From NCBI RefSeq assembly GCF_020150815.1, contig NZ_CP083724.1, positions 124,001-188,000 on the forward strand: a stretch of 64,000 nucleotides of DNA, given 5' to 3'. Both the position numbers and the translations under genes were made by a program. The notes below the pieces were generated by a model that saw only the letters and a program-made list of their open reading frames with translations, did no database searches and was not told the origin of the DNA. Positions 34,679 through 64,000 of the stretch are shown one piece after another; position 1 is the first letter of the stretch; every line of letters begins with the position of its first letter. The stretch is from Haloprofundus salilacus (lineage in GTDB: Archaea; Halobacteriota; Halobacteria; Halobacteriales; Haloferacaceae).

Positions 34679-35212
34679 TCAAAGTATCGTTGGTAAGAGC
34701 GTACGTGACTCCCGTTAAACATTGAGATCAACTCACGGTCAATGGGTCACCGTCTGAAGGATTACCCCATCATAACGAAGTCCCTGCAACTGTCCGTCAC
34801 TAAGGTACTTTTATGAGAGTTGTCTAGACTGTTGGGTTCGTGTCAACCCCGTTCGCTCAACCCTCCCGGCCATCCCATCAGGCTGAACGGAGGGTTGATT
34901 TATGCACCTGCATTCACCGAAGTCGACGAAGAGGTACATACTTCGAGGATGCTGCATACATCTGCGCTCAACCGTTGGGGATTGTCGCTATAATCACTTT
35001 ATGAGGGAATCATTGGCTAGAAAGATTACCGAAGAGCGGATCTCTTATCATCCAGCCATACAATAATGTTCTGGAGTTAGAACTGGTGACGGCAGAGAAA
35101 GGGACTACCTTGTCTGGGTGAAGTCAGACAGATCTAATCCCTGAGTAGGCTGGATGAATCGTGGTAGATGCGGGGGCAAACACTTTGTACCGGGCAGTCA
35201 GTGGATTCGACT
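34679..35212. other. Intergenic border of the defence island, with an inverted repeat
   Basis: These 530 bases have no supported gene. CAACCCTCC (34858-34866) and GGAGGGTTG (34889-34897) form a perfect 9-bp inverted repeat around a 22-base loop. A second possible stem uses CCGTTC and GAACGG in the same stretch. The promoter of the PglZ operon must lie in the last 150 bases; I see no convincing TATA box there. Confidence 0.45.
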
Positions 35213-38817: not shown

Positions 38818-38823
38818 CTTCTC

Positions 38824-39138
38824 ATGGCGCTTGTAGCACCCGTAATGGACGAGTTAAACAAACCCTGGAATAGACTCGTTATCGTAACAGCAGGAGACGC
38901 CAAGGCTGCCCAGGGATCTGTATTCGATTTCGTTGACGAGCTCCAGTTCCGTCTCTCCGGAGACTTCGAGCTCGCGTTCGTCGGTCCAGATGATGAAGAT
39001 GATGGGGAGGGAAATAAGATCGTCTTAATGACACGTCCACTTAAAGAACACGTCGCTGGTCGCCGTGTTTATGTTGTCCCCGAGGAATCATACATCAAAT
39101 CCGGACTAATGCGTTTCCGAGTCCGCCCATCTACATAA
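38824..39138 (+). CDS. Small unknown protein of the PglZ operon
   Basis: This 104-aa protein has an alternating strand/helix pattern: NRLVIVTAGDAKAAQGSVFD, FVDELQFRLSGDFELAFVGP, an acidic loop (DDEDDGEGN), KIVLMTRPLKEHVAGRRVYV and VPEESYIKSGLMRFRV. It looks like a small alpha/beta domain, but I see no catalytic motif and do not recognise a family. The ATG at 38824 lies 6 bases after the previous stop and its stop is 6 bases before the ATPase gene, so it is inside the operon and should be made with it. By position it could be an adaptor between the winged-helix protein and the ATPase. Confidence 0.7.
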   Translation: MALVAPVMDELNKPWNRLVIVTAGDAKAAQGSVFDFVDELQFRLSGDFELAFVGPDDEDDGEGNKIVLMTRPLKEHVAGRRVYVVPEESYIKSGLMRFRVRPST

Positions 39139-39144
39139 GATACC

Positions 39145-44227: not shown

Positions 44228-44679
44228 CTACGAAGAGACGCTATCGGCTAACTCCAAGATCGGGATCGTCCGCTTCGTGTCCTTTCCGTGTTGGATTTCC
44301 TTGTTCTGGAAATCGAACTGGATGGGTTCTCCGAGATAGGAGGAGCGTTCTATTTTCGTAAGGACGTCCAAGTCACCGAGTTTCCAGCAGATCAACCGGT
44401 CGATATGTGACAGCGCGGCTTCTTCTTCGAAGAAATCACTCAGCTTGACGTGGAGGGCGGCCTTCTCGAAGCCGTTGTCGGTCTCGAGAATTGCGTTCAC
44501 TTCGTCATCCATCTGGAAGTCTGCGATCCGGACGGTCTCCGGCGCTCCATCCAGTAGTGAATGTAGTACGGGCATCTGAACCGAGAAGGGTATGCCGCCT
44601 CCCGGAATTCCAGTAAGCTTGACTCAATATCAGGTGGGAGGGGTAAGCCCGGAACGAGATCCCCTATTATGGAATTCAC
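44228..44679 (-). pseudogene. Frameshifted C-terminal remnant of a GHKL-ATPase defence gene
   Basis: The 116-codon frame 44228-44575 contains VNAILETDNGFEKAALHVKL, LSHIDRLICWKLGDLDVLTK and SSYLGEPIQFDFQNKEI. This aligns throughout with the last ~110 residues of the intact GHKL protein at 56968-58509 (NAILTVGEKLEAATLVVNLH, LERIVCWSLGDLDVLCE, GYFGHSIDF). The preceding homologous stretch, PLPPDIESSLLEF (intact copy: PSNPPEVIASLAI), continues in a different frame up to about 44679, so a frameshift separates them. Everything N-terminal, including the ATPase, is gone. It is convergent with the HerA-like gene, 8 bases away. It shows that another copy of the downstream system once lay here, or that the domain was carried over during rearrangement. 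Confidence 0.72.
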
Positions 44680-50026: not shown

Positions 50027-50222
50027 TACCGCACCCGAACGTTCAGCATCCATAACACTATCAATATCTTGTCTGCAACTAAATGTTTGGTAACTTCCGG
50101 CTTGGAATTCTAACTCTATATTCGGTTGTTTATTTCCGTCAATTCTCATATTTAGCTGCGTTCGCTGGAGATATTGCCACACCGATTTGACTTCGAAGAT
50201 GTGCAGAAGTACCCGGAATCAA

Positions 50223-51566
50223 CTACACTATCTCGTCTAATACATCTCCCAGCTTATGCTCCAACTCAGACGCCTGCAGTATCGTTATAGCACTCTTTGA
50301 CTGCTCACTAAGACCCGCAGTCTCCTCTGGGAGATCCTGAATCACGAGGATTCCATTCGATCCGTTACCGAAGTACTCCTCATCTGTCCCATCGCCGAAT
50401 ACGAACTGATCGTTCACTTGGAGGAATGCTAAATATTCGAGTGTCTCTTTGATTCCTTGGCGAATGGTATCTGTTCGAGTGCTGTTCTTCACTTCCGTGA
50501 TTAGATACTCTCGTTCGTCACTGTCTGCAGGGTTCACTTCGAGGACAATCAGATCCGGGCGTCCTGTGTGGTCGGTGAACGTGCGTTCGGTGAAGTATTG
50601 GTTAGCGACACTCCGCGCCATGGTCTGTACTTTCTCTGTTCGAGAGGCGTCCTCGTTCTCCTCTGGGACAGCCAAGAACGAAAGATCACGATCCGGTGCT
50701 GAGCTGTCGTGATACAACACTAGCTCGGTCTTACCCTCTATCCGGGCGACTTCTTGGCGGCCAGAACGAATCGTGTTGAACTTCGCATTTTCCTCGGTGA
50801 GTTGCTCGAGGGTTGCCACAAACCGGAACAGCACGAATAACTCAAACAGGGTATCCTCATCGTCGGGCGTGATTGCAGTTTCATCGAGCAATCGCCGAAG
50901 CTCATCGGGATGACCATCATGCAGACGCCGCCGTGTCTCCAACAATGACGCTGCATCCCGGTACAGTGCTTGCCGAGACTCCAGTGCGTCGTTCACCATC
51001 CGATCGGTCGGCTCGTACGCCTTCGGGTCGCGAATCCGTCGTACGTGCACGTTCCGCTCAACAACACGACGAAGCCGATTCACGAGTGGCTCATTCCAAG
51101 TCGAGGCGACCCAGTCATAGTTCCGATGCAGATACTCATCTGCTTCACGAAGCGTCGAGTACACGATCGCAAGCAGTCGCTTCAACACGAGGTTCTCGCT
51201 GCTGTCGTAGTCCTCGGTGCGATTCTCACAGACAAACAACGAGCTATCGCCTGGGTTTTCGCTGTAGCGTCGCTTGAGTGTCGCATTCCAGTTGATCTTC
51301 CCATCGACCGTTCCGCGCCGTACTCGCGACACAGACTGGGTTTCAGTCCGAATGTTTCGGAGTCGTTTGGGGAGGTGTTCGACGAACTCGATGACCTCAG
51401 GCAATAACACGAAGTGGAGGTCCAGCAGGAGCTCGTACTCCTCAAATCGCTCATCAAGCCCTTGCGGTTTGAGCGAGCGTGCGAGTTCCCGTTCTGGAAA
51501 CGCCCCATGCATTACATACGCGAGGATGTCCTCTGTGACTTGATCGAGGAGTTCTTCTTTATTCAT
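50223..51566 (-). CDS. mcrC: McrC-like nuclease subunit of a type IV restriction system
   Basis: The middle of this 447-aa protein carries the DUF2357-like pattern TVDGKINWNATLKRRYSENP and DSSENLVLKRLLAIVYSTLR, typical of McrC-related proteins. The C-terminal PD-(D/E)xK nuclease has Asp in GRPDLIVLEVNPADSD (about 337) and the E-x-K pair in YLITEVKNS (about 355). The first gene's McrB-type AAA protein overlaps its start by 8 bases (51559-51566), so the two are translated together. McrC cuts DNA after McrB has bound a modified base and used GTP to translocate. The N-terminal part (RNIRTETQSVSRVRR) is family-typical. Confidence 0.88.
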   Translation of the reverse strand: MNKEELLDQVTEDILAYVMHGAFPERELARSLKPQGLDERFEEYELLLDLHFVLLPEVIEFVEHLPKRLRNIRTETQSVSRVRRGTVDGKINWNATLKRRYSENPGDSSLFVCENRTEDYDSSENLVLKRLLAIVYSTLREADEYLHRNYDWVASTWNEPLVNRLRRVVERNVHVRRIRDPKAYEPTDRMVNDALESRQALYRDAASLLETRRRLHDGHPDELRRLLDETAITPDDEDTLFELFVLFRFVATLEQLTEENAKFNTIRSGRQEVARIEGKTELVLYHDSSAPDRDLSFLAVPEENEDASRTEKVQTMARSVANQYFTERTFTDHTGRPDLIVLEVNPADSDEREYLITEVKNSTRTDTIRQGIKETLEYLAFLQVNDQFVFGDGTDEEYFGNGSNGILVIQDLPEETAGLSEQSKSAITILQASELEHKLGDVLDEIV

Positions 51567-54500
51567 CTGCGGTCAGTGCCACCTGCAGCATGTCTCGCGA
51601 CGCCTGATCAAGCATCTCAGTATCAATATGCTGGACGCCCGCGATCTGACGGAGGATCTTCTCTCGCTTCGGCACGCCCTCCAACTGTGGACAGATGAAG
51701 CTGATTACAGCCTGTGTGAGGCGTGTCGATTGCGACACACTGCTGTGAGCCGAGACAGTGGATAGAATATCTTTGACCACCGCAGGCCCAATCGAGCGGT
51801 CCTCAACTGCGTTATTGGTCGCCCGCCACACCTGGCCGACGTCTGCAAGCTGTGACTCACTCACCGAGATATTCCAAGCCTTCGCGTACGCATCCATGAC
51901 GTCGACGAGTTCGTCCGAGTCACTCGACATTGTTGGTGCCGGGACGCGGATGAATGCGAAGCGACGCATAAACGCATAACTCATCTCGTACAGCGAGGTT
52001 TTGTCGTAGGTGTTCAGCGTCGCGAACAACCGCCACGACTGTGGAATCACATACTCGTGGCCCGCTGGCGTGTTCAGCGTCTGGTCTGCAGGCGATAACT
52101 CGATTTCAGCACCATCACGCGTGTACGGTAGCTGTACGGCTTGGCCCGAGAGTACGGTGAAGAGTTGGCCGAACGCTTTGTCGATGTCCGCCCGGTTGAG
52201 CTCGTCAATGACGAGCGGCTCATTCAACTGCGCAGCACACTGGCGATCTTTGAATCGATTGAGGATCAATCCCGGTGAGAACTCGAGTGCATTCCCGTTC
52301 GTGCTTTCGCCGTCTGGCATGTAGCCACCGACGGTGTCGAAGGTCGACCAATCAGCAGTCGCTGTTGTCACCTGCGACCCACTGAACAAGTACGGATACT
52401 CGGCTTCGAGATACTCACAGACGCGACGCGCGATCTCAGTCTTCCCTGTCCCCGGTGGTCCAGTCAGAATCAAATGCTTGCCTGTTCTGAGTGCAACCTC
52501 GATCTGCTCGATGATTTCCTTCCCTTCCCCATCAGGGAAGTAGAGCCCGTCCAGAATTGATTCTGGTAGCTCTCCTGTGAAGGATTTGTGGAGTGCGACA
52601 GACGGTGCTTCAAGTACGCGCCCTGCGAGCACATCTGCGAGTGCAACTCCCTTGGAGAGTTCCGCACTCGTACCAAGCGATTCGACAGTACGGTGTCGTG
52701 GGAAGCCAGTCTCTGAAACCTCGCGACAAATCTCGTTCGTACGATTAAACGGTAGTAGCCTCGACGTCAATGCATCTAACTCGGTCGAGACTGTCTCAGG
52801 ACTCTTCTCCACGACCGGTTTCATGAAGTCGATCTCGTCCAATTGACCAGCGACGAAGAGACGCTCGAATGCGACGAGCAGTGGGAAGGAGTCTCCCTTT
52901 GGGCCACCTTCATGTTCGTCATACCACCACGACTCACTGTCGTCTTTCGTGGTTTTCGCCCGGATAATCCCTGCACCAAGGAGTCCGCTCTCTTGTTCTG
53001 GGAATTCGTCCCAACTCGGACTCGTGCGTGAATGGAAGATGATGACGTCTCCTTCTTCGAGGCCATTCCATGCGTCTCGGTCAGGCGTCTCGAATGAGAG
53101 TGCAGCGTATTCGTAGACTGTGAGCCAGTAATCTGGTGGGGCTGTGAATTTGTGGATTTCGACATCGTTGTCGCGAAGATGCTTGACGAGTGGGTGACCG
53201 GAATTCTCGAAGGATGGTTTCCTGACTGGAATGTCGTCTTCACCTTCTGGTGGCTGGGTTTCTGGCTGCTTGACAGTATATCTGTTATTGAGTATGACTT
53301 TGACTTTGACTTGGCTTGCGTTCGGTTGCTTACCGCTTTGTTGTTGGAGTTGACGGAAAAAGACCACAAACAGCGTCGCTGATGGGGAGAGTCGGTTGAG
53401 AGACGCAGATTGAATCGCTGCCGCTTGTGATTTGAGTCGGGTTTCAGCGTCGGTATACAGTTGCTTGATTTGGGTGAGCTTTGTCGCTCGTTCTACTGTC
53501 ACCACTGAACCAGGTTCTAATCCCCGTAATGCGTCTGTCCAATCTCGGACAATGGTTTCTCCTAGCTGGCTGGCAAGCCAGTTGGACTCACCTGGAGTCT
53601 GTTCTAATCGATTCGTAATGTCTGAGACGGCAGCTGACACTGAATCGTAGTTTTCCGCTGGTGGAAGCCGATGTGAGTGCAGTAATTCAATAGGATATCT
53701 ACACTCGTCTAATACTCTCTCGAGCTCATTTGAAATAGTAATAAAGAGCTCAAGAAGCTCTGGTGGACACTGCGTGAAGTAGCCTCCCTGGACAAATCCT
53801 CCGTTTTTATTATAGAAGATTTTGCTGTACTCTTGTCGAATCTCCTCCAGGGTGTATTCGAAGTCCTCGTTTTCAAGAATATTTTTACGGACATCAATCG
53901 GTTCCTCGAACTCGTGGTAATTCTTGAGCCACCGTCGATAGCCCGCTTGTTCGTCACTCCATCCAAACTCTGGACGCCCCGCGAATTCTGTCTCCAGCTC
54001 AGATTCTATCTGTGAAATGCCAACAATTTGATCAACGTCCTGGGAAAGATGCAAGACAAAATCGCCAACTGAGGCTTCTCGCATCGTCGCGTAAATATCA
54101 CTGCCACCACTATCTTGTGTAGGTGAGTAGATTGCGTTTCCTAGCCGAAGCTCGCCTTGTTTTTTGTATTTATTCTTCTCAACCGTTGTTTTTTCAATCC
54201 AGACACGCGGTGGGCCGCCGTCCTCCATAAGTAGATTCTCACCGTATCCCGTCAGTGAGTATTGTCCGTCCTTCTCTATGATTGCGTCGAGCGCCTGCAA
54301 CCATTCTAAGTGACGTCCGACGACCGCCCACGGCAGCTTATAATTCGGGTAGTGGGTTCGCATTGTCTCCTGAATCTCATTCCCGGGTTTGGGACCTCCA
54401 CTGAGTGCCTGCAGAATTGTCTCAAAGCCTTTGACGTTCTCGACGAGGGCATCGAATATGAGATCTCGATTTCCTAACTCGGCGTAAGCTGTGCCGCGGT

Positions 54501-54987
54501 CCGTAAGCTGGTATTCGTCTCCTGTTTGTTCGAAGATGCCGAGTGCTCGCTGGAAGGAGAGATATTTCTCGATTGTATCCTCGCTACCAGCGTCAGTGTT
54601 TGATTTCAGCCACTCTGTGAGTTCTGAGTGGGTTGGTGTCTTGTCTGCGATGTATCCGAGCATCGACCGGAGTGTTTCAAGTCGGCCACTGACACCACCG
54701 AAGAATCGATCGGTAGTCATGCGGCGGTCGTCTGGCTCGGTTGTGAGGTCTCCGTCTAAGGAGAGAATTCGGTAGTTTCCATTGCCTAGGAATTCTATTT
54801 CGCCTCGGTCTCGAAACTCTTGGAGGTTCCGACGAATCGAGGCATCAACGTGGTCGTTGTCGGGGAATTGTTCTTCGAATCGACTAATAGCAAATTTTCG
54901 GAATCCGGTAAGTGTGAACTCGGAGCTTCCTTGTTTGTCTCGGTAGTTTCGAAGTTCGGATCGAATTGTGTTCTCCCAAGTAGACAT
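51559..54987 (-). CDS. mcrB: McrB-like AAA+ GTPase with modification-reader domains
   Basis: This 1142-aa protein (E. coli McrB has 459) carries three reader-like regions. Residues 1-75 (RDKQGSSEFTLTGFRKFAIS, DASIRRNLQEFRDRGEIEFL, GNGNYRI) resemble the DpnI_C-type winged helix of methyl-DNA readers. PPRVWIEKTTVEKNKYKKQG to VGDFVLHLSQDVDQIVGISQ (about 257-345) and DYWLTVYEYAALSFETPDRD to GDVIIFHSRT (about 619-720) resemble EVE/PUA-like modified-base binders. The AAA part has Walker A GPPGTGKT (about 842), Walker B VIDELNRADID (about 925), LFATLNTYDK and FMRRFAFIRVPAP. The GTPase assignment rests on the McrB-type LNRADID sequence. It forms an operon with McrC. Other winged helices lie around 90-240. 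Confidence 0.88.
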   Translation of the reverse strand: MSTWENTIRSELRNYRDKQGSSEFTLTGFRKFAISRFEEQFPDNDHVDASIRRNLQEFRDRGEIEFLGNGNYRILSLDGDLTTEPDDRRMTTDRFFGGVSGRLETLRSMLGYIADKTPTHSELTEWLKSNTDAGSEDTIEKYLSFQRALGIFEQTGDEYQLTDRGTAYAELGNRDLIFDALVENVKGFETILQALSGGPKPGNEIQETMRTHYPNYKLPWAVVGRHLEWLQALDAIIEKDGQYSLTGYGENLLMEDGGPPRVWIEKTTVEKNKYKKQGELRLGNAIYSPTQDSGGSDIYATMREASVGDFVLHLSQDVDQIVGISQIESELETEFAGRPEFGWSDEQAGYRRWLKNYHEFEEPIDVRKNILENEDFEYTLEEIRQEYSKIFYNKNGGFVQGGYFTQCPPELLELFITISNELERVLDECRYPIELLHSHRLPPAENYDSVSAAVSDITNRLEQTPGESNWLASQLGETIVRDWTDALRGLEPGSVVTVERATKLTQIKQLYTDAETRLKSQAAAIQSASLNRLSPSATLFVVFFRQLQQQSGKQPNASQVKVKVILNNRYTVKQPETQPPEGEDDIPVRKPSFENSGHPLVKHLRDNDVEIHKFTAPPDYWLTVYEYAALSFETPDRDAWNGLEEGDVIIFHSRTSPSWDEFPEQESGLLGAGIIRAKTTKDDSESWWYDEHEGGPKGDSFPLLVAFERLFVAGQLDEIDFMKPVVEKSPETVSTELDALTSRLLPFNRTNEICREVSETGFPRHRTVESLGTSAELSKGVALADVLAGRVLEAPSVALHKSFTGELPESILDGLYFPDGEGKEIIEQIEVALRTGKHLILTGPPGTGKTEIARRVCEYLEAEYPYLFSGSQVTTATADWSTFDTVGGYMPDGESTNGNALEFSPGLILNRFKDRQCAAQLNEPLVIDELNRADIDKAFGQLFTVLSGQAVQLPYTRDGAEIELSPADQTLNTPAGHEYVIPQSWRLFATLNTYDKTSLYEMSYAFMRRFAFIRVPAPTMSSDSDELVDVMDAYAKAWNISVSESQLADVGQVWRATNNAVEDRSIGPAVVKDILSTVSAHSSVSQSTRLTQAVISFICPQLEGVPKREKILRQIAGVQHIDTEMLDQASRDMLQVALTADE

Positions 54988-55293
54988 ATAGAGATCTTGT
55001 CTTTCGTCTACTCATCAGCCATAATTAGTATTCCGACAGTGGCTTCTAAAGGAGGCATGCCAGGCAGAAGCCGGATGCCAAAGGTAACTATTAGATTGCC
55101 GACGGGTTCGGATGGTGCTCTGGTGAGTAAAACGAGTTACCTGGAGAAAGCCAGATAGTATATAAACCACAAGAACCCGTTCCTCCATAATTCTGGCATT
55201 TTGCCGGCTCTTCCCCCAATATGATTATTCTACAAAACTTTCGCGTAGTAGAATGGGTAACACTTTTGATGTTCTCGATCATCGGTGATCTCG
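54988..55293. other. Divergent intergenic region with a TATA box
   Basis: About 305 bases between mcrB (-) and the DUF6884 gene (+). A strong TATATAAA (55159-55166) points rightward and would start a transcript with a leader of about 100 bases before the ATG at 55294. No protein is supported inside; the ORFs are short and featureless. Confidence 0.5.
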
Positions 55294-55752
55294 ATGGGCA
55301 ATTTACTACTACAAGGGTGCTCCAACCGAAAGGTGGACGTCGAAGGCGAGAAAGCCGCCATCGAAGTCTACGATGGGTACTTCTATCGTATCATAGACAA
55401 CGCAGACGCACTCGATTCAGTGAGCTGGGATGTGGTGATTCTCTCTGCTGAGCACGGTCTCTTGGACCCACACGAGACGATACGACCGTACGACCGTGAA
55501 ATGACGCCATCACGGGCTACAGAACTCAACGATGCAGTTGTTCCAGAACTCGCACGCCTGATAGCTGAAGGTGCGTATGAACGCTTGTGGATAAATCTCG
55601 GTCAGACGTATCGTCTCGCAGTTGATGGAATCGAATCAGAGATAGACATCCCTGTTGAATATCTCTCTGGCCGACTCGGTAACCGAGGCAATCAACTCAA
55701 GCGACTACTCACCGGGTCCATTGACCCAGCTACATCGATTGCTAACGACTGA
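55294..55752 (+). CDS. DUF6884-like protein of the base-modification cluster
   Basis: The 152-aa protein starts at ATG 55294; a TTG/ATG three codons upstream is also possible. It contains GNLLLQGCSNRK, then SWDVVILSAEHGLLDPHETI and RPYDREMTPSRATELNDAVV, the hallmark motifs of DUF6884/YaaA-like proteins (GCSxxK, SAxHGLLxPxxxIxPYD). The fold is alpha/beta and the cysteine of GCS is a likely active-site residue. The gene is the first of a + strand unit with a TGT-like transglycosylase (1-base gap) and a GHKL ATPase. The GCS/HGLL pattern resembles the PCS/GPVPK-type pattern of the ArcS-like domain at the end of the second TGT protein, so both may act on a 7-deazaguanine; this is an inference. Confidence 0.75.
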   Translation: MGNLLLQGCSNRKVDVEGEKAAIEVYDGYFYRIIDNADALDSVSWDVVILSAEHGLLDPHETIRPYDREMTPSRATELNDAVVPELARLIAEGAYERLWINLGQTYRLAVDGIESEIDIPVEYLSGRLGNRGNQLKRLLTGSIDPATSIAND

Positions 55753-55753
55753 G

Positions 55754-56968
55754 ATGGTTTCGTTCACTGTGTCAGACGAAGTTGGCGAAGCTCGAGTAGG
55801 AGAGCTGAAAACAGCAAGTATGACTCTCCAGACACCTCATCTCCTTCCAGTCGTCAACTTCTACTGTGGAGGTACGAGGAACTCACTGTATGGTGGTGGG
55901 ATATTCCGTACTATCAAAGAGTTCCTAAGCAGTCATCCAGAAACGGTTCATGGGCGTGACTATTCGGAATTCTTCAAAGGAGTCATGAGCTCGGTTGCAG
56001 CACTCACTGACTTCAATATCACCCAGGAGCGGTACCTGGACTATCTGGGAACACCAATACGTGACCGTGTCGAATTCTCCGACTTCGATGGTGGACTCTT
56101 CGTAGATTCTGGCGGCTACAAAATACTACAAAAAGGAGGACTCAGCGGCTCAAATTTCGACCTCAACGTTAGCCAAAAAGCCGTGTATGGGATTCAGCGA
56201 GCATTCGGGGGAGATATCCTGGTGAACCTCGACTCACCGCTTTCTCCGAATGACGACTACGAAACACGGGTTCAAAAGACGGAGCAAACTGCTGAATACG
56301 TGCGAGAATTTCTCGCACTGACCACCCGAGAGGAATCCCGATATCTGACAATCCATGGCCACAACCGAACAATGATTGACCGATTCCTAACGACCGTCGA
56401 ACATACACTGAATCGGCCTCTGAAGGGAACGTTCGACGGATTTGCACTCGGAAGCCTCGTTCCTTACAAAGACGACATGGGAACACTGATTGAGGCAGTC
56501 ACTGCAGCGAAGAAAGAACTTGCAGACCGCGATCTCGGTGACCTCCCACTCCACGTTTTTGGGATTTCAGGTCGGGTACTTCCGTTGCTCGTAGCACTCG
56601 GTGTTGACTCGTTCGATTCGGCGTCGTATTTGCACGCCGCCATCAACGGGAAGTACAGTACTTCATTGTTTGACACCGTTCCTCTTTCGCAGGCAATTTT
56701 CGACGATTGCCACTGCCCAGTTTGTGAGACTGAAGCGTTACGCAGTGATATGCGTGGTAACACTCGATATCAAAAAGATGTTCTTGGACCAGTTGCGGTC
56801 CACAATCTGGCTGTCCAGCAATTCGAGCTGAAGAAGATCAGAGAGGTGCTTCAAACGGGCGACCAAGACAGATTCCGTAGCTACCTAGAAGAGATGTACC
56901 GAGACCGCCCTGCTTCGCGAAAATTTGCGTACCGAACTATCAACAAAACCCTCGAGCCGTACTTTTGA
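55754..56968 (+). CDS. TGT/DpdA-like transglycosylase, copy 1
   Basis: The 404-aa protein starts at ATG 55754. It has the family's barrel and zinc features: GGLFVDSGGYKILQKGG (the DSGG loop, about 115), GDILVNLDSPLSPN (about 153), GTFDGFALGSLVPYKDD (the GG-loop-type substrate stretch, about 226), HVFGISGRVLPLLVALGVDS, and the zinc-binding CHCPVCE (about 320) with the later His in PVAVHNLAVQQFE. tRNA-guanine transglycosylases exchange guanine for a 7-deazaguanine in RNA; DpdA homologues do it in DNA. It is unlike the host's own tRNA-type TGT in neighbours and size, with no PUA domain. It is cotranscribed with a DUF6884 protein and a GHKL ATPase, as expected for a DNA-modification or defence role. 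Confidence 0.82.
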   Translation: MVSFTVSDEVGEARVGELKTASMTLQTPHLLPVVNFYCGGTRNSLYGGGIFRTIKEFLSSHPETVHGRDYSEFFKGVMSSVAALTDFNITQERYLDYLGTPIRDRVEFSDFDGGLFVDSGGYKILQKGGLSGSNFDLNVSQKAVYGIQRAFGGDILVNLDSPLSPNDDYETRVQKTEQTAEYVREFLALTTREESRYLTIHGHNRTMIDRFLTTVEHTLNRPLKGTFDGFALGSLVPYKDDMGTLIEAVTAAKKELADRDLGDLPLHVFGISGRVLPLLVALGVDSFDSASYLHAAINGKYSTSLFDTVPLSQAIFDDCHCPVCETEALRSDMRGNTRYQKDVLGPVAVHNLAVQQFELKKIREVLQTGDQDRFRSYLEEMYRDRPASRKFAYRTINKTLEPYF

Positions 56969-58509
56969 TGATGGAAAAATCCGTTCATTCCCGACGACCG
57001 ACAGTCAACGAGGTTAACGAATTCCTGGAGACCGCTAGTGACTTCGAAAACCCATTGGAGCTGATACGAGAAGCACTTTCTAACTCGTATGATGCTCGTG
57101 CTGAGAATGTAGAGATACAGATTGATGAGCTCTCTGACGGACGGACTCGAATCCGAATCAAAGACGATGGGGTCGGTATGGATGCTGACGGATTAGCGAG
57201 CTTCTTCGACTTAGGAAATTCTAACAAGTCCAACTCTATCGGATACAAAGGACATGGAACGAAAATCTACTATAAGAGCGACTCGGTCACCGTCGAGACA
57301 GTAAAAGACGGGAGCCACTATCACGCCGAAATGGAACAGCCGTGGAAGCGACTCAATAACCATCAGTTACCAGAGTATCAGTACCAAATATCTCCCGCAG
57401 ACGAAGCGTCGTTCACCAAGATCGAAATCGTGGGCTTCCGATCCGGTGATAGCTTCAGCAGTCGGAAAATAACCTACAACCGGCTCGACCACTACATCAA
57501 TTGGAAAACCATCGGCGGGTCACTTGCCCATCGATTCGACGAAGACGCTCACGAAATGACGATTTCACTAGAGCTAGACGATTCACTCGACCGTACTCAA
57601 GGAACTCTTTCACAGTCATCGAGGTTCAAGTTTCCACCTAAACGAACCGATTTCGAGACGACTTCTGACGTTGACAATCTCTGTAAGCACTATCCGAAGA
57701 AGATTCTCACTGTGAATGTGGACGGAAAAGAGGTACAGATAGAGGTCGTTGGGTTTGTCGCTGGAAAGGCGGCACGGGAGGAACTCCCCACCCATGGCAG
57801 ACACTCTAGCCAGTTTGGAGTTTGGCTTGCGAAGGACCACATCAAAGTAGAGCGTGTAAATGACGTAATTGGATCTGATCATGAACCCTCGAGGTTCTTC
57901 TTTGTCGCAAATTGCCAAGCTCTCGAACTCTCCGCTAACCGAGAGACGATCAGAAACAAGTCCGACTCTGTGTATTCAGCGGTGAAAGCCGAACTCCGTC
58001 GGTTCATCACTCGCGTCACGGAAAATGAATGGTACAGAGAGTACACTGAGGCCCGGCGTGCAGCTCAACAGGTCCGGGCGTCCGCCTCCCAATCAGAGTC
58101 AATCGCGAATCGAAAACAGCAGCTGTCCCTTGACGGACACAAAGTGCCGTCGAATCCACCAGAGGTCATCGCGAGTCTCGCCATATACAACGAAACTGCA
58201 GACTCCGACATTCGCGTCGTAGATTACGAGCCGGGAGCTGACGCCAACGCGATTCTCACCGTCGGTGAGAAGCTAGAAGCTGCGACTCTCGTCGTCAATC
58301 TACATGAGATCTTTGAGTCAGAGCTCACAGTCTCCGAACTGGAGCGAATCGTCTGCTGGTCACTGGGTGACCTCGATGTACTCTGTGAGACTGCTCGAAA
58401 AGGATACTTTGGCCACAGTATTGACTTCGTGACGAGAGGTGACCAAACGTCTCTTGTCGTCGACGGTGAAGAGGTTCCAATCGTCGAGTTACGCTCGTCT
58501 CTCTATTAG
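56968..58509 (+). CDS. GHKL (MORC/Hsp90-type) ATPase with unknown C-terminal domain
   Basis: The 513-aa protein starts at the ATG at 56968 (overlapping the TGT stop by one base) or at the next codon. The N-terminal ATPase has LIREALSNSYDARAENVEIQ (N-box Asn, about 34-42), RIKDDGVGMDADG (G1 box, about 66) and GYKGHGTKIYYKSDSVTVET (G2 box, about 92). The middle (about 150-380) is a transducer-like domain. The last 110 residues form a separate domain with NAILTVGEKLEAATLVVNLH, IVCWSLGDLDVLCE and GYFGHSIDFVTRGDQ. A decayed copy of that domain is at 44228-44679. GHKL ATPases of this type dimerise on ATP and often act as DNA clamps in defence systems. It is the last gene of its unit. Confidence 0.85.
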   Translation: MMEKSVHSRRPTVNEVNEFLETASDFENPLELIREALSNSYDARAENVEIQIDELSDGRTRIRIKDDGVGMDADGLASFFDLGNSNKSNSIGYKGHGTKIYYKSDSVTVETVKDGSHYHAEMEQPWKRLNNHQLPEYQYQISPADEASFTKIEIVGFRSGDSFSSRKITYNRLDHYINWKTIGGSLAHRFDEDAHEMTISLELDDSLDRTQGTLSQSSRFKFPPKRTDFETTSDVDNLCKHYPKKILTVNVDGKEVQIEVVGFVAGKAAREELPTHGRHSSQFGVWLAKDHIKVERVNDVIGSDHEPSRFFFVANCQALELSANRETIRNKSDSVYSAVKAELRRFITRVTENEWYREYTEARRAAQQVRASASQSESIANRKQQLSLDGHKVPSNPPEVIASLAIYNETADSDIRVVDYEPGADANAILTVGEKLEAATLVVNLHEIFESELTVSELERIVCWSLGDLDVLCETARKGYFGHSIDFVTRGDQTSLVVDGEEVPIVELRSSLY

Positions 58510-58640
58510 ACGTTTTGAGGTTCGTAGCGAATGGCTAAACCACGAGTACCAGGCCCTCTCTGTCGTTTCCGAAAGTGTAGGGCCGTCAACATTGTCGTCG
58601 TAGTCGAGTATGAGTTTCAGGCTTGGAACCCGACGTGATG

Positions 58641-60626
58641 TCACTTTTGAGCCTCTTGCGGCTCACATGACCGTTCGATGGCGGAAACGAGTTCGTCTAA
58701 GTGTTCGGTTCGGAAGTGCTCGGTAAGCCTTCGAGATGGTGGATCGGATGGAAGAATGCGACCGATGCCAGCTTCTTCGAACGCAGCATCGATCGTCGTT
58801 CGATATGTTTTGCTGGTCGCGTAGCCGATTACGTTGTCGAAATGGTCTCCGTAGTCGTCGAGATACGAGACCAGACGGTCTTTCACTAGTTCTACCTGAG
58901 ATTCGTCGGCATCGGTGAGTACGTAGTCATAGGTCAACACTGCATCCTGTGATTCGAAGTCTTTCGGCACTGGGCCGTAAAGTCCAGAGACGGATACCTT
59001 GTGGATGTTGTTCCAGAGACCTGCATCGACGAGTCTCTCTTTGACTACTTTGTGGGTCCGAGAGCTACTGTATGGCTTCGTGGCGCTACATGGGAGGATC
59101 AAACAGATGGTTTCGTCGGTATCGAGGCAGTATGTGGTCTCACGGAGGTCGAAGTCTGCAGGTGTGTGTGCGAGTGATGTCCCGTCTGTCGGTGGGACGA
59201 TGTGACTCCCTTCTGAGTCGAATCGTGTCTGGAACGTTTGTGGATTGGATTCGGGTGCATTGGACTCGATGTCCATCTGTTCTGGAACTAGCGGCCGCAA
59301 GTCCGGCCATCGGGCTGCTGCACGGGCTAATCCGGTGGCGATGTCGTCGTTTTGTTTAGCTTTACTCTCGACGAGCGATCCGAGTTCCTCTCGTTTGATT
59401 TTCTCGCGGACTTCCGTGACTTCGTTTTGAAATACGTGGAAGTTGTGGTGAGCGATGAGCGCATAGAAATCGCTCTTCATGTATTTCTTCACTTCTCCAT
59501 TACGTTCGAACTCGACTGGTTTGTACGACCGATCAGCCTCGAACACTCGTTGCATATCACGTATCCCAACGTCGGTGAGTTCCTCACACGCTGGGCACTG
59601 ACACTTCCAGGTGTCGGTCGATATTTCGGAAGCCAGTACTGTCTCCCAAGTATCATAGTGGATGAACTTCTTATGTTGGGCAGCTTGAACGTACGTTGAC
59701 GAGTCATAGCTATCTACGCCTAACACGGCGATCAACGGACCGAGTTTCCCACCTACACCAAAGACGTGCAAAGCCAAGTCATCTTGGCGGTGGGGAGGTA
59801 TCGAATCAGTCGCTCCTTGTACAATGTCGACTAAAGTTCCAATGTTACTCGACCGTAGCGGGACGAGTGAGCCGACAGCAAAGCCATCGATCCGTTCCGG
59901 GTAATCAGTCCGCTCAAGAAGTTTCGAGACATAGTACGCGACTTCGCTATAGTTGTGGCCGTGGATCGCTGCGTATACTGTCGGGTCCCAGTCGGCATAT
60001 TCCTCTTCTTCTTCGAGCAACCGAAGGCACTCGACGGCACTATCGATACTGGCTTCGATACGTTCGTATTTCTCAGCGTCGTTGAGATCAGGTGGAATTG
60101 GGTAATCCAGTGTCGCGATGAGGTCGGACCCGTAGTCGTATTGCAAACTCAGAATCGACTCTGGATTTGTGTAGATTTCCCATTCATTCGCTTCGCCTCC
60201 CTCTTCTGGCGGGTCACCGAATGTCCGTGAGTTCATCAGCTTGAAGCCACCCGAGTCGACGAACAACGGCTGCGTAAATGGTGAGGGAGTTGGATTGTCT
60301 TTCGGGGAGTCATGGTCAGTGAACCAATCGTGGAGTCCATTCGCATCTGTACGCCAGGATTCCACTGCGTTCGCTGAGAGATTAAAATCGAGGAAACTCA
60401 TCGCTTGGAACATTGCCCCTTGGAAGGCCTCGTCAGCGAACAGACGATTTCTGAGTCGGCTCCAGATTCCTCCAGAAACGGGTGTTGGTCCGCCTATCAA
60501 GTTGAGAACAGGAAAGAACGAGGGTGTCTCTACGAATCCACCCTGTGGGGCTGCTGGAACGTAGAGGCGGCCAGCACGGGCTTTACCCACTTCTGCCCGC
60601 TTCGTAGACTCGAATCCTCTCTTCAT
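58641..60626 (-). CDS. TGT/DpdA-like transglycosylase fused to an ArcS-like domain
   Basis: Residues 1-420 of this 661-aa protein are a TGT domain: GGFVETPSFFPVLNLIGGPT, LFVDSGGFKLMNS (DSGG loop, about 145), YGSDLIATLDYPIPPD, RIDGFAVGSLVPLRSS and the zinc set WKCQCPACEELTDVGI with HHNFHVF. After a linker (about 420-500), residues 505-640 form an ArcS/DUF5591-like domain with LILPCSATKPYSSSRTH at 509-525. This fits the archaeosine-synthase signature PC-x3-KPY-x2-S-x2-H exactly; downstream VSGLYGPVPKDFESQDAVLT matches the same domain's later motif. In tRNA this domain converts preQ0 to archaeosine. A single protein could thus insert preQ0 into nucleic acid and amidate it. It is convergent with the GHKL gene and on the strand of the helicase-DUF1998-PLD unit. 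Confidence 0.85.
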   Translation of the reverse strand: MKRGFESTKRAEVGKARAGRLYVPAAPQGGFVETPSFFPVLNLIGGPTPVSGGIWSRLRNRLFADEAFQGAMFQAMSFLDFNLSANAVESWRTDANGLHDWFTDHDSPKDNPTPSPFTQPLFVDSGGFKLMNSRTFGDPPEEGGEANEWEIYTNPESILSLQYDYGSDLIATLDYPIPPDLNDAEKYERIEASIDSAVECLRLLEEEEEYADWDPTVYAAIHGHNYSEVAYYVSKLLERTDYPERIDGFAVGSLVPLRSSNIGTLVDIVQGATDSIPPHRQDDLALHVFGVGGKLGPLIAVLGVDSYDSSTYVQAAQHKKFIHYDTWETVLASEISTDTWKCQCPACEELTDVGIRDMQRVFEADRSYKPVEFERNGEVKKYMKSDFYALIAHHNFHVFQNEVTEVREKIKREELGSLVESKAKQNDDIATGLARAAARWPDLRPLVPEQMDIESNAPESNPQTFQTRFDSEGSHIVPPTDGTSLAHTPADFDLRETTYCLDTDETICLILPCSATKPYSSSRTHKVVKERLVDAGLWNNIHKVSVSGLYGPVPKDFESQDAVLTYDYVLTDADESQVELVKDRLVSYLDDYGDHFDNVIGYATSKTYRTTIDAAFEEAGIGRILPSDPPSRRLTEHFRTEHLDELVSAIERSCEPQEAQK

Positions 60627-60918
60627 CTATCTGTTTCTCATTGAACGATGGGAGTTAAGACCTCTTCCCTTCATGTCGCTGTGAATAGTCTGAAAGTTGT
60701 CAATGTTGGACACATTTCGCTGACGACACGATGTCGCCGACCGATTTCAGCCCGACCTTCTCAACCGAAGGTAGAGAGTTGAAAGAAGTTTCAAAACTCT
60801 CTCGGTCCAATTTCGGTCGACCGACCGCATGACTCAGTTCCCACACTGGGTTAAATAGTACGTCCACAGTCACTCTAACGAGTGCGGCTATCTATCATCT
60901 CTGTGTGAGTTGTGTAAA
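60627..60918. other. Intergenic region with an inverted repeat
   Basis: About 290 bases between the second TGT gene and the PLD gene (both -). GAGAGTTGAAAG (about 60776) and CTTTCAAAACTCTC-like bases (GTTTCAAAACTCTC at about 60790-60803) form an imperfect inverted repeat. TTTCGGTCGACCGACCG nearby is also palindromic (CGGTCGACCG). They could be operator or terminator sites. No gene is seen. Confidence 0.4.
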
Positions 60919-61800
60919 CTAGTTTTCGACGACCTCCTCGAGGATTTCACGTGTCACTTTCTCTGCTTTGTCTTCGAAGAAATCAAAAAAGGCGGTCCAA
61001 GTTTTGATATCTGCACGTCTCCGTGTGAGATATCCAGCCTCCCCGTTGAGCATCATGGAGCTATCGCGTATCTCTCCACTCCCTATGTATGCGAGCGTTT
61101 CATCTGCAATTGCCATTTTTGCGTGGATGCTCCGATCCAGTTTTGGGTTTTTACCACCAATCGCGTGGTAATAATCATATACGCTCAGTGTACTTTCTGG
61201 AGCGTCAATCGCCGCAAAGCGGTCCATGAGTTCCAAGATCGCTTTTCGGTCGCGATTATGTTTGTATTCATCTGAGGGCCGGAGAAGCTCTCTGGTGAGA
61301 ATTTTGAGCTCCACTCCCGACCTTACCGACTGCTCGAACGCGTCTTCTAATCTATTTAGTCCGTCAATCTCAAAGTACGGAGCAACCACTCGAAGTGTGG
61401 AGTCCGCAGTGGTGAACACTTCTGTGAGCGCGTCTTTTAATCTAATTCCCTGCCCGACATTTCTACGGTCTGCAAAGGCTTCCCAGTCGGTTTGGACTCT
61501 CGTTGGAATGCTCACCACTGGCTGGTAGGTCATCTCATCTTTTACCCGATTCACCGATGTCGAATGAGAGTCCAATATTTGATAATATGCTTCACGCTCT
61601 ACTTCCGCGTCCTGAAGCTCGTATTTTTGCTCACTCACCGGAGACACAGCACCTCGTTGGGAAAGGTAGTCGAGGTACTCGCTTGCGAAGTTACGAGCGG
61701 CTGTGATGTCTTCGTACTCGTCTGGAATGTCATCGACCGATACTTCGTTAGTGGCTTGAATTTCTTCATGAAGCCACAAGTAGAGTTCGTCATCAAGCAC
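60919..61800 (-). CDS. PLD-family nuclease (DrmC/DpdK-like)
   Basis: The 293-aa protein begins at GTG 61800 in an 8-base overlap with the DUF1998 gene. A helical N-terminal part (1-100) is followed by a phospholipase-D-type domain. DSTLRVVAPYFEIDGLNRLE (about 140) and GVELKILTRELLRPSDE (about 170) are its strands, and SIHAKMAIADETLAYIGSGE (about 215-235) supplies the HxK-x4-D-x6-GSGE catalytic motif. One HKD motif is clear; such enzymes act as dimers. In DISARM (DrmC) and Dpd (DpdK) the PLD gene follows the helicase/DUF1998 genes as here. The likely role is DNA cleavage or end processing. Confidence 0.85.
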   Translation of the reverse strand: MLDDELYLWLHEEIQATNEVSVDDIPDEYEDITAARNFASEYLDYLSQRGAVSPVSEQKYELQDAEVEREAYYQILDSHSTSVNRVKDEMTYQPVVSIPTRVQTDWEAFADRRNVGQGIRLKDALTEVFTTADSTLRVVAPYFEIDGLNRLEDAFEQSVRSGVELKILTRELLRPSDEYKHNRDRKAILELMDRFAAIDAPESTLSVYDYYHAIGGKNPKLDRSIHAKMAIADETLAYIGSGEIRDSSMMLNGEAGYLTRRRADIKTWTAFFDFFEDKAEKVTREILEEVVEN

Positions 61801-63532
61801 GTCGAATCACCTGGGCGGCGAGATTCCGGTTGAGAAGGCTATTTGCGGGAATATATCCCTCAACTTCCTCGGAGACAAAGGGATGACATCGGGCATCGTC
61901 GGTAAACACACATGACAAACAAGCATCAGTGCAATCACGCGCACAATCGACGAGGATCTCCTCTGCCCGCTGTAACGTTCGAAGAAGCACGTTTCCGGTC
62001 TTGTTCATGGTGATTTGACTTAGGCCTCCCGCACCCACATCGCGTTGTTCTACAAGTACTATTGCTCCGGGTTCTACAAGCACTTTTGCGGCAAGGAAGT
62101 CTTCGAGGCCTGATTCCTCGACCGCGGCTTGATACAAGGCATGCTGGAATGCGTGTAGGAGGGGAATGAGTTTCAACCCTGTTCCCCCCTCAGCAATCTC
62201 GTCAGCGTCAAGATTGTTCAGTCGTGCCAGTTCCCTTGACGCGATTTCACCATATCCTGCCTCCCCACTACTGACTATGCCAGCTAGGACATCCGATCGA
62301 AGGTCAAAAACGATTCCGCGTCCCTCCCGGCGTGTTAAGTAGGCAATGCGCTCGTAATCGGGCTTATTAGAGTTGAAGGTTCGAGCCAATCGACCCTGGA
62401 TATCGAGGTCGGTTCCATGTGATTCGACATTCGACTTGTAACCGTAAACACTTGAAACAGAGCTGACATCAGCAACGGTAAAAACATCATTGAGACCAAA
62501 TGTATCGTGGAAGATAGCTTGACTTCCAGATGTGATGGTGTCGAGATTCCAGTGATATGTGTCGTCATCCGCTTCGTTCTCGATGCTTGTTTCGTACAGA
62601 GCATCGAGTCTCGTGCCGTGTCTACTAACAATATCTTCGAGAATCAATGGCTCTATGTGTTTTGCGTCGACAGCTTTCGGACGCATTTCTGCGAGTAGTT
62701 CCTCTTGACCGTTGGCAGCTGGTTTGTGACAAATTGGACAGTGACCATGGAAGCGAGCGGAATGGTCACGACGCTCAGAGCAAACGAATCTGACACCGGA
62801 GAGCCGATCACCTAACTCAACATGGAGATGTCCCCGACAACCGTTTTCCGGGCATGAGATGCTATCTCTCATATCGTCTTTTCCAATGACGACTTGGGGA
62901 GCTGGTTTATCACTAGAAATCTGCATCCACGTATGCGGGCTCGCCTGTTCAATATGTGCACACCTTGGACAAACGAAGAGATACGGAAACCGACGCATCT
63001 GATGAGATGCAACGTCGGGACAATTAACTGACTGTTGCACCGCTTTTGGCTTCGCAATCCTGAAATGACCACAGGAGGTGTCAGTACACCTATACACCCG
63101 TGGGAAGGGGACGTTGACCACTTTAGAATTCCTGGTCAGCTCTGCTAATTCGATATCTGAGCGCGAGAAGTCGTACGACCGCAAGGGTTCATCTGAGTCA
63201 TCATTTTCGGTCGAAGTATCATCTTTTCGCTTCTCTCGTTCTGCATACTGACGGAACGTCGCAGGGAGGTCATCTGATGTAAACTTGTCTGGCTCATCAT
63301 CGGTGTTTTGTTCATGTGCAGCCTCTTGCCGGGAATTTGCCTCGGTCGTATACGTATAGAACTCGGTATCTAAGTTACTGATGACCGTGGCGAGTCGATC
63401 TGCAAACGGTTCTAAATCAGTCGGCGTATCGTATCCACGAATAGTCTCTACCAGCACCCGGTGACCATCCTCCGACCTCACCTTGCCAGGATACGCTGAC
63501 AGAAGAACCTGATATTGTGATAGTTTTGACAT
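61793..63532 (-). CDS. DUF1998 (DrmB-like) protein of a helicase-DUF1998-PLD module
   Basis: The 579-aa protein starts at ATG 63532, which overlaps the helicase stop (TAATG). The N-terminal 270 residues contain several cysteine knuckles (YRCTDTSCGHF, FVCPRCAHIEQ, CPENGCRGH, GHCPICHKPA), i.e. zinc-ribbon-like sites. The C-terminal part is the DUF1998 domain: GEIASRELARLN, LKLIPLLHAFQHALYQAAVE, AIVLVEQRDVGAGGLSQITM and the closing cluster ARDCTDACLSCVFTDDARCH. DUF1998 is usually fused to or next to a DEAD helicase (DrmA/DrmB in DISARM, DpdJ-type in the Dpd system). Its role is structural or in nucleic-acid binding. It is the middle gene of a coupled set. Confidence 0.88.
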   Translation of the reverse strand: MSKLSQYQVLLSAYPGKVRSEDGHRVLVETIRGYDTPTDLEPFADRLATVISNLDTEFYTYTTEANSRQEAAHEQNTDDEPDKFTSDDLPATFRQYAEREKRKDDTSTENDDSDEPLRSYDFSRSDIELAELTRNSKVVNVPFPRVYRCTDTSCGHFRIAKPKAVQQSVNCPDVASHQMRRFPYLFVCPRCAHIEQASPHTWMQISSDKPAPQVVIGKDDMRDSISCPENGCRGHLHVELGDRLSGVRFVCSERRDHSARFHGHCPICHKPAANGQEELLAEMRPKAVDAKHIEPLILEDIVSRHGTRLDALYETSIENEADDDTYHWNLDTITSGSQAIFHDTFGLNDVFTVADVSSVSSVYGYKSNVESHGTDLDIQGRLARTFNSNKPDYERIAYLTRREGRGIVFDLRSDVLAGIVSSGEAGYGEIASRELARLNNLDADEIAEGGTGLKLIPLLHAFQHALYQAAVEESGLEDFLAAKVLVEPGAIVLVEQRDVGAGGLSQITMNKTGNVLLRTLQRAEEILVDCARDCTDACLSCVFTDDARCHPFVSEEVEGYIPANSLLNRNLAAQVIRRA

Positions 63533-64000
63533 TATTTCGTCACCTCGGATGGGGTCGTCCATTCAATTGACGTCTCAACTTGGTCCTCTTGGGGGCCCCG
63601 AAGTTGGATTTCCCTATTTCGGAAATACTCAGAGAACCACTCGTTAATATTCATAGGAGTATTGTCTGTGCGTGCCCGGATTGCGGTATCAAACCAGGCA
63701 CTTTCTCGTTCTGCGTCACCGATGAACCCAAATAGTTGTTCTGTGATTTGTTTGTCAATTACTTCCAGAATCTGGTGGTCAAGCTGGAGATCGTCTGGGC
63801 AGAAGATGCTTTTCATATCTAAATACAGTTCTCGAGCGTGCGGGTTTCTTAGCGGGTTCTTGTGATCGTCGAACATGTTGACTAAATCTTGGATGTCGTG
63901 TGGATTTTCACGGTCGACAGCCTTCTCGCGAATGGCATACTCTATTGTTAAAAACGGCCCCAGAAGGTATTCGAAGAGAATACGAGCCAAATAGGGATTA
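63532..64000 (-). CDS. C-terminal end of a probable helicase (DrmA-like), cut by window edge
   Basis: The frame is open from the right edge to a TAA at 63532-63534, giving about 155 residues: NPYLARILFEYLLGPFLTIE, AIREKAVDRENPHDIQDLVN, NPLRNPHARELYLDMKSIFC and EIQLRGPQEDQVETSIEWTT. This part has no motif that identifies it alone. Its position directly before a DUF1998 gene (overlap TAATG), and the predicted helical character, fit the C-terminal tail of the helicase that precedes DUF1998 in DISARM-like or Dpd-like clusters. The helicase motifs would lie beyond the window. If a helicase is absent there, this call is wrong. Confidence 0.55.
   Translation of the reverse strand, partial: NPYLARILFEYLLGPFLTIEYAIREKAVDRENPHDIQDLVNMFDDHKNPLRNPHARELYLDMKSIFCPDDLQLDHQILEVIDKQITEQLFGFIGDAERESAWFDTAIRARTDNTPMNINEWFSEYFRNREIQLRGPQEDQVETSIEWTTPSEVTK

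What the first reader, a model, noticed from the sequence alone, without database searches (positions are those of the whole stretch)
55294..64000. Candidate archaeal DNA-modification and defence system built on two TGT/DpdA-like proteins, one fused to an archaeosine-synthase domain
Seen: two TGT-like proteins (55754-56968 and 58641-60626) with DSGG loops and C-x-C-x2-C...H zinc sites; the second ends with PC-x3-KPY-x2-S-x2-H, the ArcS signature. Next to them are a DUF6884 protein, a GHKL ATPase, a DUF1998 protein, a PLD nuclease and a probable helicase tail. Known: DpdA proteins put 7-deazaguanines into DNA, ArcS turns preQ0 into archaeosine in tRNA, and haloarchaea make preQ0 for tRNA. Inference: the cluster may place preQ0 in DNA and amidate it to a deoxyarchaeosine-type base, with a linked helicase/nuclease arm acting against unmodified DNA. 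I know of no described system with this gene set.
Basis: partly seen in the sequence, partly recalled or inferred. Interest (0 to 1): 0.93.

Follow-up and report, generated by a model that had tools for sequence, protein, structure and literature searches.

The report
DISARM-type defence with guanine-swapping enzymes
A salt-loving archaeon carries two enzymes of the guanine-swapping (TGT) family, one fused to an archaeosine-synthase domain, next to a DISARM-type helicase and nuclease set; together they likely mark the cell's own DNA with a modified guanine and are predicted to destroy viral DNA that lacks the mark.

Summary
In detail: all seven proteins are there, and the gene cut off at the window end is a complete 1166-aa helicase running to 67032. 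Corrections: (1) helicase, 'DUF1998' protein and PLD protein form a DISARM-type DrmA-DrmB-DrmC trio. (2) DUF6884-TGT1-GHKL is a conserved triad, contiguous in 30 of 292 haloarchaeal genomes sampled; the GHKL ATPase was found in those 30 only, and 27 of them also have the TGT2-DUF5591 fusion. (3) 'No described system' is partly wrong: a 2025 preprint (PMC12458937) names BRIGADE, haloarchaeal systems with a 7-deazaguanine cluster and usually two YprA helicases, and the same core sits in loci of that layout. In this genome neither helicase was found; the DISARM trio is there instead. TGT2 keeps motifs of both an active TGT and archaeosine synthase, while the genome's own ArcS lacks the TGT motifs. 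The fusion also occurs in cyanobacteria and, by database names, Chloroflexota and Poribacteria. DUF6884 and DUF5591 appear distantly homologous, so the core looks like two 'insert and lock' units. DNA as target, the exact base and the defence role are inferred. Verdict: new variant of a known kind (Dpd/BRIGADE-like modification with a DISARM-type effector).

The parts
55285..55752 (+). DUF6884 protein, 155 aa; YaaA/DpdC-type nitrile-acting candidate (invariant C-S-x2-K and S-A-x2-G)
   Evidence: PF21818 8.7e-11, YaaA PF03883 5.2e-6 (below its cut-off); weak PADLOC DpdC 0.0046; invariant residues in 20 sequences; similarity to DUF5591
55754..56968 (+). TGT1, 404 aa; stand-alone TGT with catalytic and zinc motifs, no PUA domain found
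   Evidence: PF01702 3.5e-27; profile match to ArcTGT 1iq8 4e-29; motifs
56965..58509 (+). GHKL ATPase, 514 aa, MORC-like by best structural matches; overlaps the end of TGT1 by 4 bases
   Evidence: PF13589 1.9e-14; AF2 model pLDDT 76.9, best Foldseek PDB match MORC4 5.5e-12, Hsp90 HtpG close behind at 7.3e-12; in 30 of 292 genomes
58641..60626 (-). TGT2: TGT domain fused to archaeosine-synthase (DUF5591) domain, 661 aa
60919..61800 (-). DrmC-like PLD protein, 293 aa, HxKx4D motif
   Evidence: PADLOC DrmC 4.7e-10; PF13091 1.1e-7; motif in 5 of 5 relatives including this one
61793..63562 (-). DrmB-like protein, 589 aa, C-terminal cysteine cluster
   Evidence: PADLOC DrmB 2.4e-26; cysteines invariant in 5 of 5
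63532..64000 (-). C-terminal end of the DrmA-like helicase; the whole 1166-aa gene continues to window position 67032 (L002:11532-15032)
   Evidence: PADLOC DrmA 1.4e-42; APTSAGKT, DETH and QTIGRTGR motifs

Best explanation
This cluster is likely a DNA-marking defence system in which two TGT-type enzymes are predicted to swap guanines in the host's DNA for 7-cyano-7-deazaguanine (preQ0), linked nitrile-acting domains would then lock the mark in, and a DISARM-type helicase-nuclease trio would destroy DNA without it. Shown here: gene identities by profile match, motifs, the conserved triad, its GHKL partner, and co-occurrence with YprA- or DrmA-type helicase arms. Inferred steps: (1) the host makes preQ0 (its QueC is on the main chromosome). 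(2) The GHKL ATPase clamps DNA for TGT1, in the place of DpdB in Dpd. (3) TGT1 and the TGT domain of TGT2 exchange G for preQ0. (4) DUF6884 (beside TGT1) and DUF5591 (fused to TGT2) attack the nitrile through their shared C-S-x2-K site, giving an amide (dADG-like, as DpdC does) and/or an amidine (lysine adduct or deoxyarchaeosine); this blocks back-exchange, as ArcS does for ArcTGT. (5) DrmA-DrmB moves along unmarked DNA and, with the PLD protein, degrades it. The two TGT/nitrile pairs are treated as separate units because each occurs without the other elsewhere.
For: Triad contiguous in 30 of 31 TGT-bearing genomes; a separate GHKL search finds those 30 of 292 and no others (hypergeometric 1.4e-41, not corrected for phylogeny). 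DrmB-type protein in 5 of 292 genomes, all 5 with the triad and a full DrmA-DrmB-PLD trio (8.3e-6), two genera only. DpdJ-like YprA helicase in 21 of 292, all 21 among the 31 TGT-bearing. Clusters of queC and queE lie within the 20 kb fetched in 9 of 30 triad genomes, queD in 7 (Pfam of one representative each, where queE shows only as radical SAM). The host has a separate TgtA-type TGT and ArcS, QueC and a TIGR01210 protein, so the C2 pair is extra. TGT2 shows DSGG, DxYDS and PCSxxKPY patterns; the genome's ArcS lacks the first two and has the PUA domain that TGT2 lacks. DUF6884 against DUF5591: score 34.5, probability 61.8%, against at most 20.0 in 20 column shuffles. In cyanobacteria, outside the archaea to which tRNA archaeosine is specific (abstract of PMC11298593), the fusion has a GmrSD_N gene downstream in 4 of 4 genomes and in one a DpdJ-like helicase between.
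Against: No nucleoside data; nothing shows DNA rather than RNA as substrate. The TGTs score nearer tRNA-type models than DpdA. Only 3 of the 5 DrmABC genomes have TGT2 (G000, G081, G106), and TGT2 lies directly beside DrmABC only in G000; in G106 the trio is on another contig. TGT2 is missing in 3 of the 30 triad genomes. G132 and G152 have the triad but none of the helicase arms searched genome-wide, nor the HerA array in the 20 kb fetched. ARMADA-like helicases also occur without the core: strong in G103 and G277, weak in G026 and G130. Only 2 candidates per genome were scored. In DrmA relatives the Walker A pattern was missed in G290 and DExH in G106.
Confidence: 0.57

Rival explanations
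1. Simply a BRIGADE system, or one of the unnamed Dpd-like/DISARM-like classes of the same preprint: an already charted haloarchaeal 7-deazaguanine defence with the helicase arm exchanged.
For: Same core in a layout that fits the BRIGADE text on the Haladaptatus plasmid NZ_CP119784; the text gives a 7-deazaguanine cluster and PLD nuclease in halophilic archaea; [quoted passage not shown]
Against: G000 has no match at E 1e-40 to either YprA helicase of those loci; its only MZB/DUF1998 Pfam match is a 790-aa frame on the main chromosome. The fusion also occurs outside haloarchaea.
Confidence: 0.2
2. The TGT core acts on RNA (tRNA or viral RNA) as a stress or antiviral RNA modification, and the restriction genes are unrelated island neighbours.
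For: TGT1 scores best on TgtA and TGT2 on TgtA, ArcS and general TGT models; the folds match tRNA TGTs (by sequence).
Against: The genome already has a TgtA-type TGT and ArcS; no PUA domain in TGT1 or TGT2; co-occurrence with YprA/DrmA arms.
Confidence: 0.13
3. A modification-dependent (type IV-like) system: the core reads or edits 7-deazaguanine bases that haloviruses put into their own DNA, and the arms cut modified DNA.
For: Tailed haloviruses carry preQ0-pathway and DpdA genes (PMC8651126, passages); GmrSD-type genes lie near the core in several loci, and McrB-like genes here and in G081.
Against: TGT and nitrile domains with their motifs kept, plus neighbouring queC/E/D genes, fit making a mark better than reading one.
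Confidence: 0.08

Closest known systems
BRIGADE (PMC12458937, preprint 2025; passages and figure legends read, supplement not seen)
   Same: Haloarchaeal, 7-deazaguanine cluster, PLD nuclease, YprA-superfamily helicase; the core here occurs in a locus that fits the text
   Different: No ARMADA-like or DpdJ-like helicase found in this genome; a split DrmA/DrmB plus PLD instead; the TGT-DUF5591 fusion also in bacteria
Dpd (DpdA-K) of bacteria
   Same: TGT insertion enzyme plus a DUF6884/DpdC-type protein; helicase and PLD arm
   Different: TGTs do not reach the DpdA model; no DpdB listed among neighbours, a GHKL ATPase instead; extra TGT-DUF5591 fusion
DISARM
   Same: DrmA-DrmB-DrmC trio, overlapping genes on one strand
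   Different: No DrmM methyltransferase listed for the 12 neighbouring genes scanned; TGT2 lies downstream on the same strand in this genome only
BRC (BREX-related capture, PMC12839542; passages read)
   Same: Some BRC loci carry a TGT with a HerA arm; an array with HerA lies 11 kb from the core here and beside the core in G069
   Different: The DISARM-type arm, DUF6884 and the DUF5591 fusion are not in the passages read; DUF6884 does not occur in that text
ArcS, archaeosine synthase alpha
   Same: DUF5591 domain and PCx3KPYx2Sx2H motif
   Different: TGT2 keeps TGT motifs and has no PUA domain; 95.3 bits against the ArcS cut-off of 440

Membership tests
BRIGADE | ARMADA-like and/or Dpd-branch YprA helicase, usually two | tested here: not met
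   No match in G000 at E 1e-40 to either helicase (2 candidates scored per genome); only MZB match is a 790-aa frame on C1. Not compared with the preprint's own reference sequences
BRIGADE | 7-deazaguanine cluster in a halophilic archaeon | tested here: met
   TGT1, TGT2, DUF6884; same core as on the Haladaptatus plasmid
BRIGADE / DISARM | PLD nuclease without (BRIGADE) or with (DISARM) an N-terminal four-helix bundle | not tested
   The PLD protein was not modelled
DISARM | DrmA, DrmB and DrmC | tested here: met
   PADLOC 1.4e-42, 2.4e-26, 4.7e-10; against NCBIfam DrmA (24.7 of 999 bits) and DrmC (31.8 of 133) fall below the cut-offs and DrmB is unlisted
DISARM | DrmMI or DrmMII DNA methyltransferase in the locus | tested here: not met
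   None listed for 12 genes (13 sequences) from 48020 to about 68500 scanned with PADLOC (best 25 families shown per protein); the rest of the genome was not searched
Dpd | DpdA equivalog | tested here: not met
   TGT1 22.8 bits, cut-off 200; TGT2 not listed. The model does ring on a Halorientalis DpdA (275.8 bits)
Dpd | DpdC (DUF6884/YaaA-type) | tested here: inconclusive
   PADLOC DpdC only 0.0046; DUF6884 is named for dpdC in PMC11888242 (passage)
Dpd | DpdB ATPase | tested here: inconclusive
   No DpdB among the families listed for the neighbours (lists capped at 25); rest of the genome not searched
ArcS | DUF5591 with PCx3KPYx2Sx2H | tested here: met
   PF17884 4.2e-15; motif; the motif as ArcS signature is recalled, but PCSARKPY is also in the genome's ArcS
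ArcS | equivalog score and C-terminal PUA | tested here: not met
   95.3 bits, cut-off 440; no PUA in TGT2, PUA found in the genome's own ArcS
tRNA TgtA | equivalog score | tested here: not met
   123.8 and 97.6 bits, cut-off 350; a separate TgtA-type TGT is at C1:246200
7-deazaguanine DNA modification | modified base in DNA | not testable with these tools
   needs LC-MS

The most novel reading that the evidence does not exclude
TGT2 is the first self-contained 'insert and finish' DNA-modifying enzyme: one polypeptide that puts preQ0 into DNA and converts it there to an amidine base (a lysine adduct or deoxyarchaeosine), while TGT1-DUF6884-GHKL writes a second, amide-type mark. The same enzyme family serves interchangeable DISARM, YprA and HerA effector arms in haloarchaea and GmrSD-HEPN arms in cyanobacteria, so archaeosine chemistry is used as a self mark in cellular DNA across two domains of life.
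Probability: 0.25. Interest if true: 0.87.

Novelty: new variant of a known kind. Interest (0 to 1): 0.68.

Why it matters
If true, DISARM-type nuclease complexes can be steered by a 7-deazaguanine mark instead of methylation, archaeosine-type chemistry can act on DNA in cells, and a GHKL ATPase can stand in for DpdB. The TGT-DUF5591 fusion, found in bacteria as well, gives a short list of simple, testable genes for finding new DNA bases by mass spectrometry.

Tried and rejected
Viral counterparts of TGT1 or TGT2: two scans of viral contigs confirmed none (31 and 12 pattern matches, none a relative by tblastn); tblastn of TGT1 against phages gave 5 records, best 1e-4. The first genome-contig scan with the single protein found nothing; the second, with the alignment, gave 28 loci, 4 of them partial matches. 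No near match in the plasmid collection by megablast. TGT2 as an ArcS orthologue: the TGT domain of ArcS groups with TgtA (support 96/94), and TGT2 joins the bacterial fusions (84/88, below the starred threshold); several long branches make deep positions unsure. The structure comparison of TGT2 tested residues 1-427 only, so the DUF5591 fold rests on sequence (2q07, 9.7e-10). The DUF6884 profile against solved structures gave one weak hit, the same 2q07 at 0.16. The small-alignment comparison of DUF6884 with the fusion was weak (probability 11.7%, E 0.0025); with 236 DUF5591 segments out of 360 fetched proteins it rose to 61.8%, E 7.6e-5. Whether the queC/D/E genes near the core are the genomes' only copies was not checked. 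The BRIGADE supplement could not be read (no supplement look-ups allowed), and the Dpd enzymology paper PMC10164549 is not held.
Full report
What is there. The window is G000:C2:124001-188000, on a 488,583-base contig of a 3.73-Mb, two-contig genome. On the + strand DUF6884, TGT1 and GHKL follow each other with a gap or overlap of a few bases. On the - strand DrmA, DrmB and DrmC overlap, and TGT2 follows after 292 bases. The helicase cut off by the window is 1166 aa long and shows APTSAGKT, DETH and QTIGRTGR; among its four relatives the Walker pattern was missed in G290 and the DExH pattern in G106.

The modification core. In a sample of 292 Halobacteria genomes, 31 have a TGT match to the TGT2 query at E 1e-30. 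28 of them have the full TGT2-DUF5591 fusion; G028, G142 and G290 have TGT1 only. 30 of the 31, all but G236, hold DUF6884-TGT1-GHKL contiguous, in that order and on one strand. A separate search for the GHKL protein finds those 30 genomes and none of the other 262. In 27 of the 30 the fusion is present too: within the same 20-kb stretch in 25, about 29 kb off in G115 and 180 kb off in G002. The p-values treat genomes as independent, which they are not.

Why 7-deazaguanine. Both TGTs keep the DSGG loop, the DxFDS-type motif (roles recalled) and the zinc ligands. Clusters of queC and queE are within the fetched 20 kb in 9 of the 30 triad genomes and queD in 7 (one representative each by Pfam, queE only as radical SAM). 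The host's tRNA-type genes are separate: a TgtA-type TGT and ArcS at C1:246-250 kb, QueC and a TIGR01210 protein (that this is RaSEA is recalled). The genome's ArcS lacks the TGT patterns and carries PUA and TGT_C2 domains; TGT2 is the reverse.

Two insert-and-lock units. DUF6884 (beside TGT1) and DUF5591 (fused to TGT2) align over 128 columns with C-S-x2-K and S-x3-G in register: score 34.5, probability 61.8%, against a best of 20.0 in 20 column shuffles and 23.8 against TGT domains. Pfam's authors relate DUF6884 to YaaA and note its CxxxK and LSAxxG motifs (PMC11701544, passage). PMC11888242 gives DUF6884 as an example domain of DpdC (passage), and PMC12839542 says DpdC turns dPreQ0 into dADG (passage). 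ArcS of Thermococcus kodakarensis transfers lysine even to a preQ0 nucleotide, is active only in complex with RaSEA, and its product is not exchanged back by ArcTGT (PMC11298593, passages). Each unit stands alone somewhere: G028, G142 and G290 have TGT1 and two DUF6884 genes but no TGT2, and the cyanobacterial loci L115 and L116 show TGT2 with no TGT1, DUF6884 or GHKL match within 10 kb. That the two units write different marks is inference.

The GHKL ATPase. Its model (pLDDT 76.9; the other four models 61-69) matches MORC4 best, with Hsp90 HtpG, MORC3, gyrase B and topoisomerase VI close behind. MORC proteins as DNA clamps is recalled. A role like DpdB's is inferred from its place in the operon and its tie to TGT1.

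The effector arm. The DrmB-type protein is in 5 of 292 genomes (G000, G028, G081, G106, G290; two genera). All five have complete DrmA-DrmB-PLD trios and all five have the triad. In four the trio is on the contig of the triad, from adjacent to about 15 kb away; in G106 it is on another contig. Only G000, G081 and G106 also have TGT2, and only in G000 does TGT2 lie beside the trio, so the link is between the trio and the triad rather than with TGT2. Other triad genomes have other arms. A DpdJ-like YprA helicase is in 21 of 292 genomes, all TGT-bearing. An ARMADA-like one is in 25 of 292: of 21 strong matches 19 are TGT-bearing (not G103, G277), of 4 weak ones 2 (not G026, G130). A HerA-containing array sits beside the core in G069 and its AAA-HerA half in G146. 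G132 and G152 showed none of these, HerA being checked only in the 20 kb fetched. The Haladaptatus plasmid NZ_CP119784 shows the same core with both YprA helicases, which fits the BRIGADE text. G000 had no match to either, so the DISARM trio appears to take their place. [quoted passage not shown]

Beyond haloarchaea. The fusion is full length in Planktothrix paucivesiculata and a second cyanobacterium and in 4 of 292 genomes of that phylum, these two included. A GmrSD_N-type gene lies downstream in 4 of 4 and a HEPN gene in 3 of 4; the fourth stretch ends at the contig edge. A database search gave 684 proteins, the best 120 listed, with names from Cyanobacteria, Chloroflexota, Anaerolineae and Poribacteria. 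The Planktothrix genome also has an ordinary TGT (505 bits). Searches of the held library for DUF5591, and for tRNA-guanine transglycosylase with cyanobacteria and archaeosine synthase, returned no paper.

Verdict. The parts and their conservation are solid; DNA as target, the identity of the base and the restriction role are inferred. As a kind it is Dpd/BRIGADE-like modification coupled to a DISARM-type effector: a new variant. The widely spread TGT-DUF5591 fusion, a candidate two-step enzyme, is the most novel element.

Noticed in passing
window 35168-44219: A four-gene array (947 aa with a weak PF01663 phosphodiesterase match, 269 aa, 1281-aa AAA, 410-aa HerA) that resembles BRC systems (the PglZ likeness is recalled; PADLOC names only HerA). 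All four have homologues beside the TGT core in G069, the last two in G146.
   Followed up: partly
window 44228-44575 (-): A 115-aa ORF similar to the C-terminal domain of the GHKL ATPase (68.6% identity to the one in L037, 36% to the one here), facing HerA: possibly a relic of a second core.
   Followed up: partly
window 48020-54987 (-): GmrSD protein, a 447-aa protein without family hits that I call McrC-like from its place only, and a 1142-aa McrB-like AAA protein with a DpnI_C domain; relatives of the last two lie next to DrmABC in G081.
   Followed up: partly
L002:15133-16513: A 191-aa protein and a SLATT-domain protein next to DrmA; both conserved (68% and 67% identity) next to DrmABC in G028.
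   Followed up: yes
L116:9980-13641, L115, L128, L129: Cyanobacterial gene set TGT-DUF5591 / GmrSD_N / HEPN, once with a DpdJ-like helicase: a possible compact bacterial system.
   Followed up: partly
L119 and L120: Bacterial MAGs (Desulfovirgula, Peptococcaceae) with a separate DUF5591 gene beside a divergent TGT on the other strand; a HerA-type gene next to them in L119.
   Followed up: no
L132: Halorientalis plasmid with a DpdA (275.8 bits, over the cut-off) beside a second TGT and a BREX-type ATPase.
   Followed up: no
L092:17139-21838: The Haladaptatus plasmid carries two TGT2-type fusions on opposite strands (Pfam of the first).
   Followed up: no
PDB 9ntn chain A: The TGT1 profile also reaches Cap10, a protein of another defence system by its name, at 3.4e-4.
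   Followed up: no
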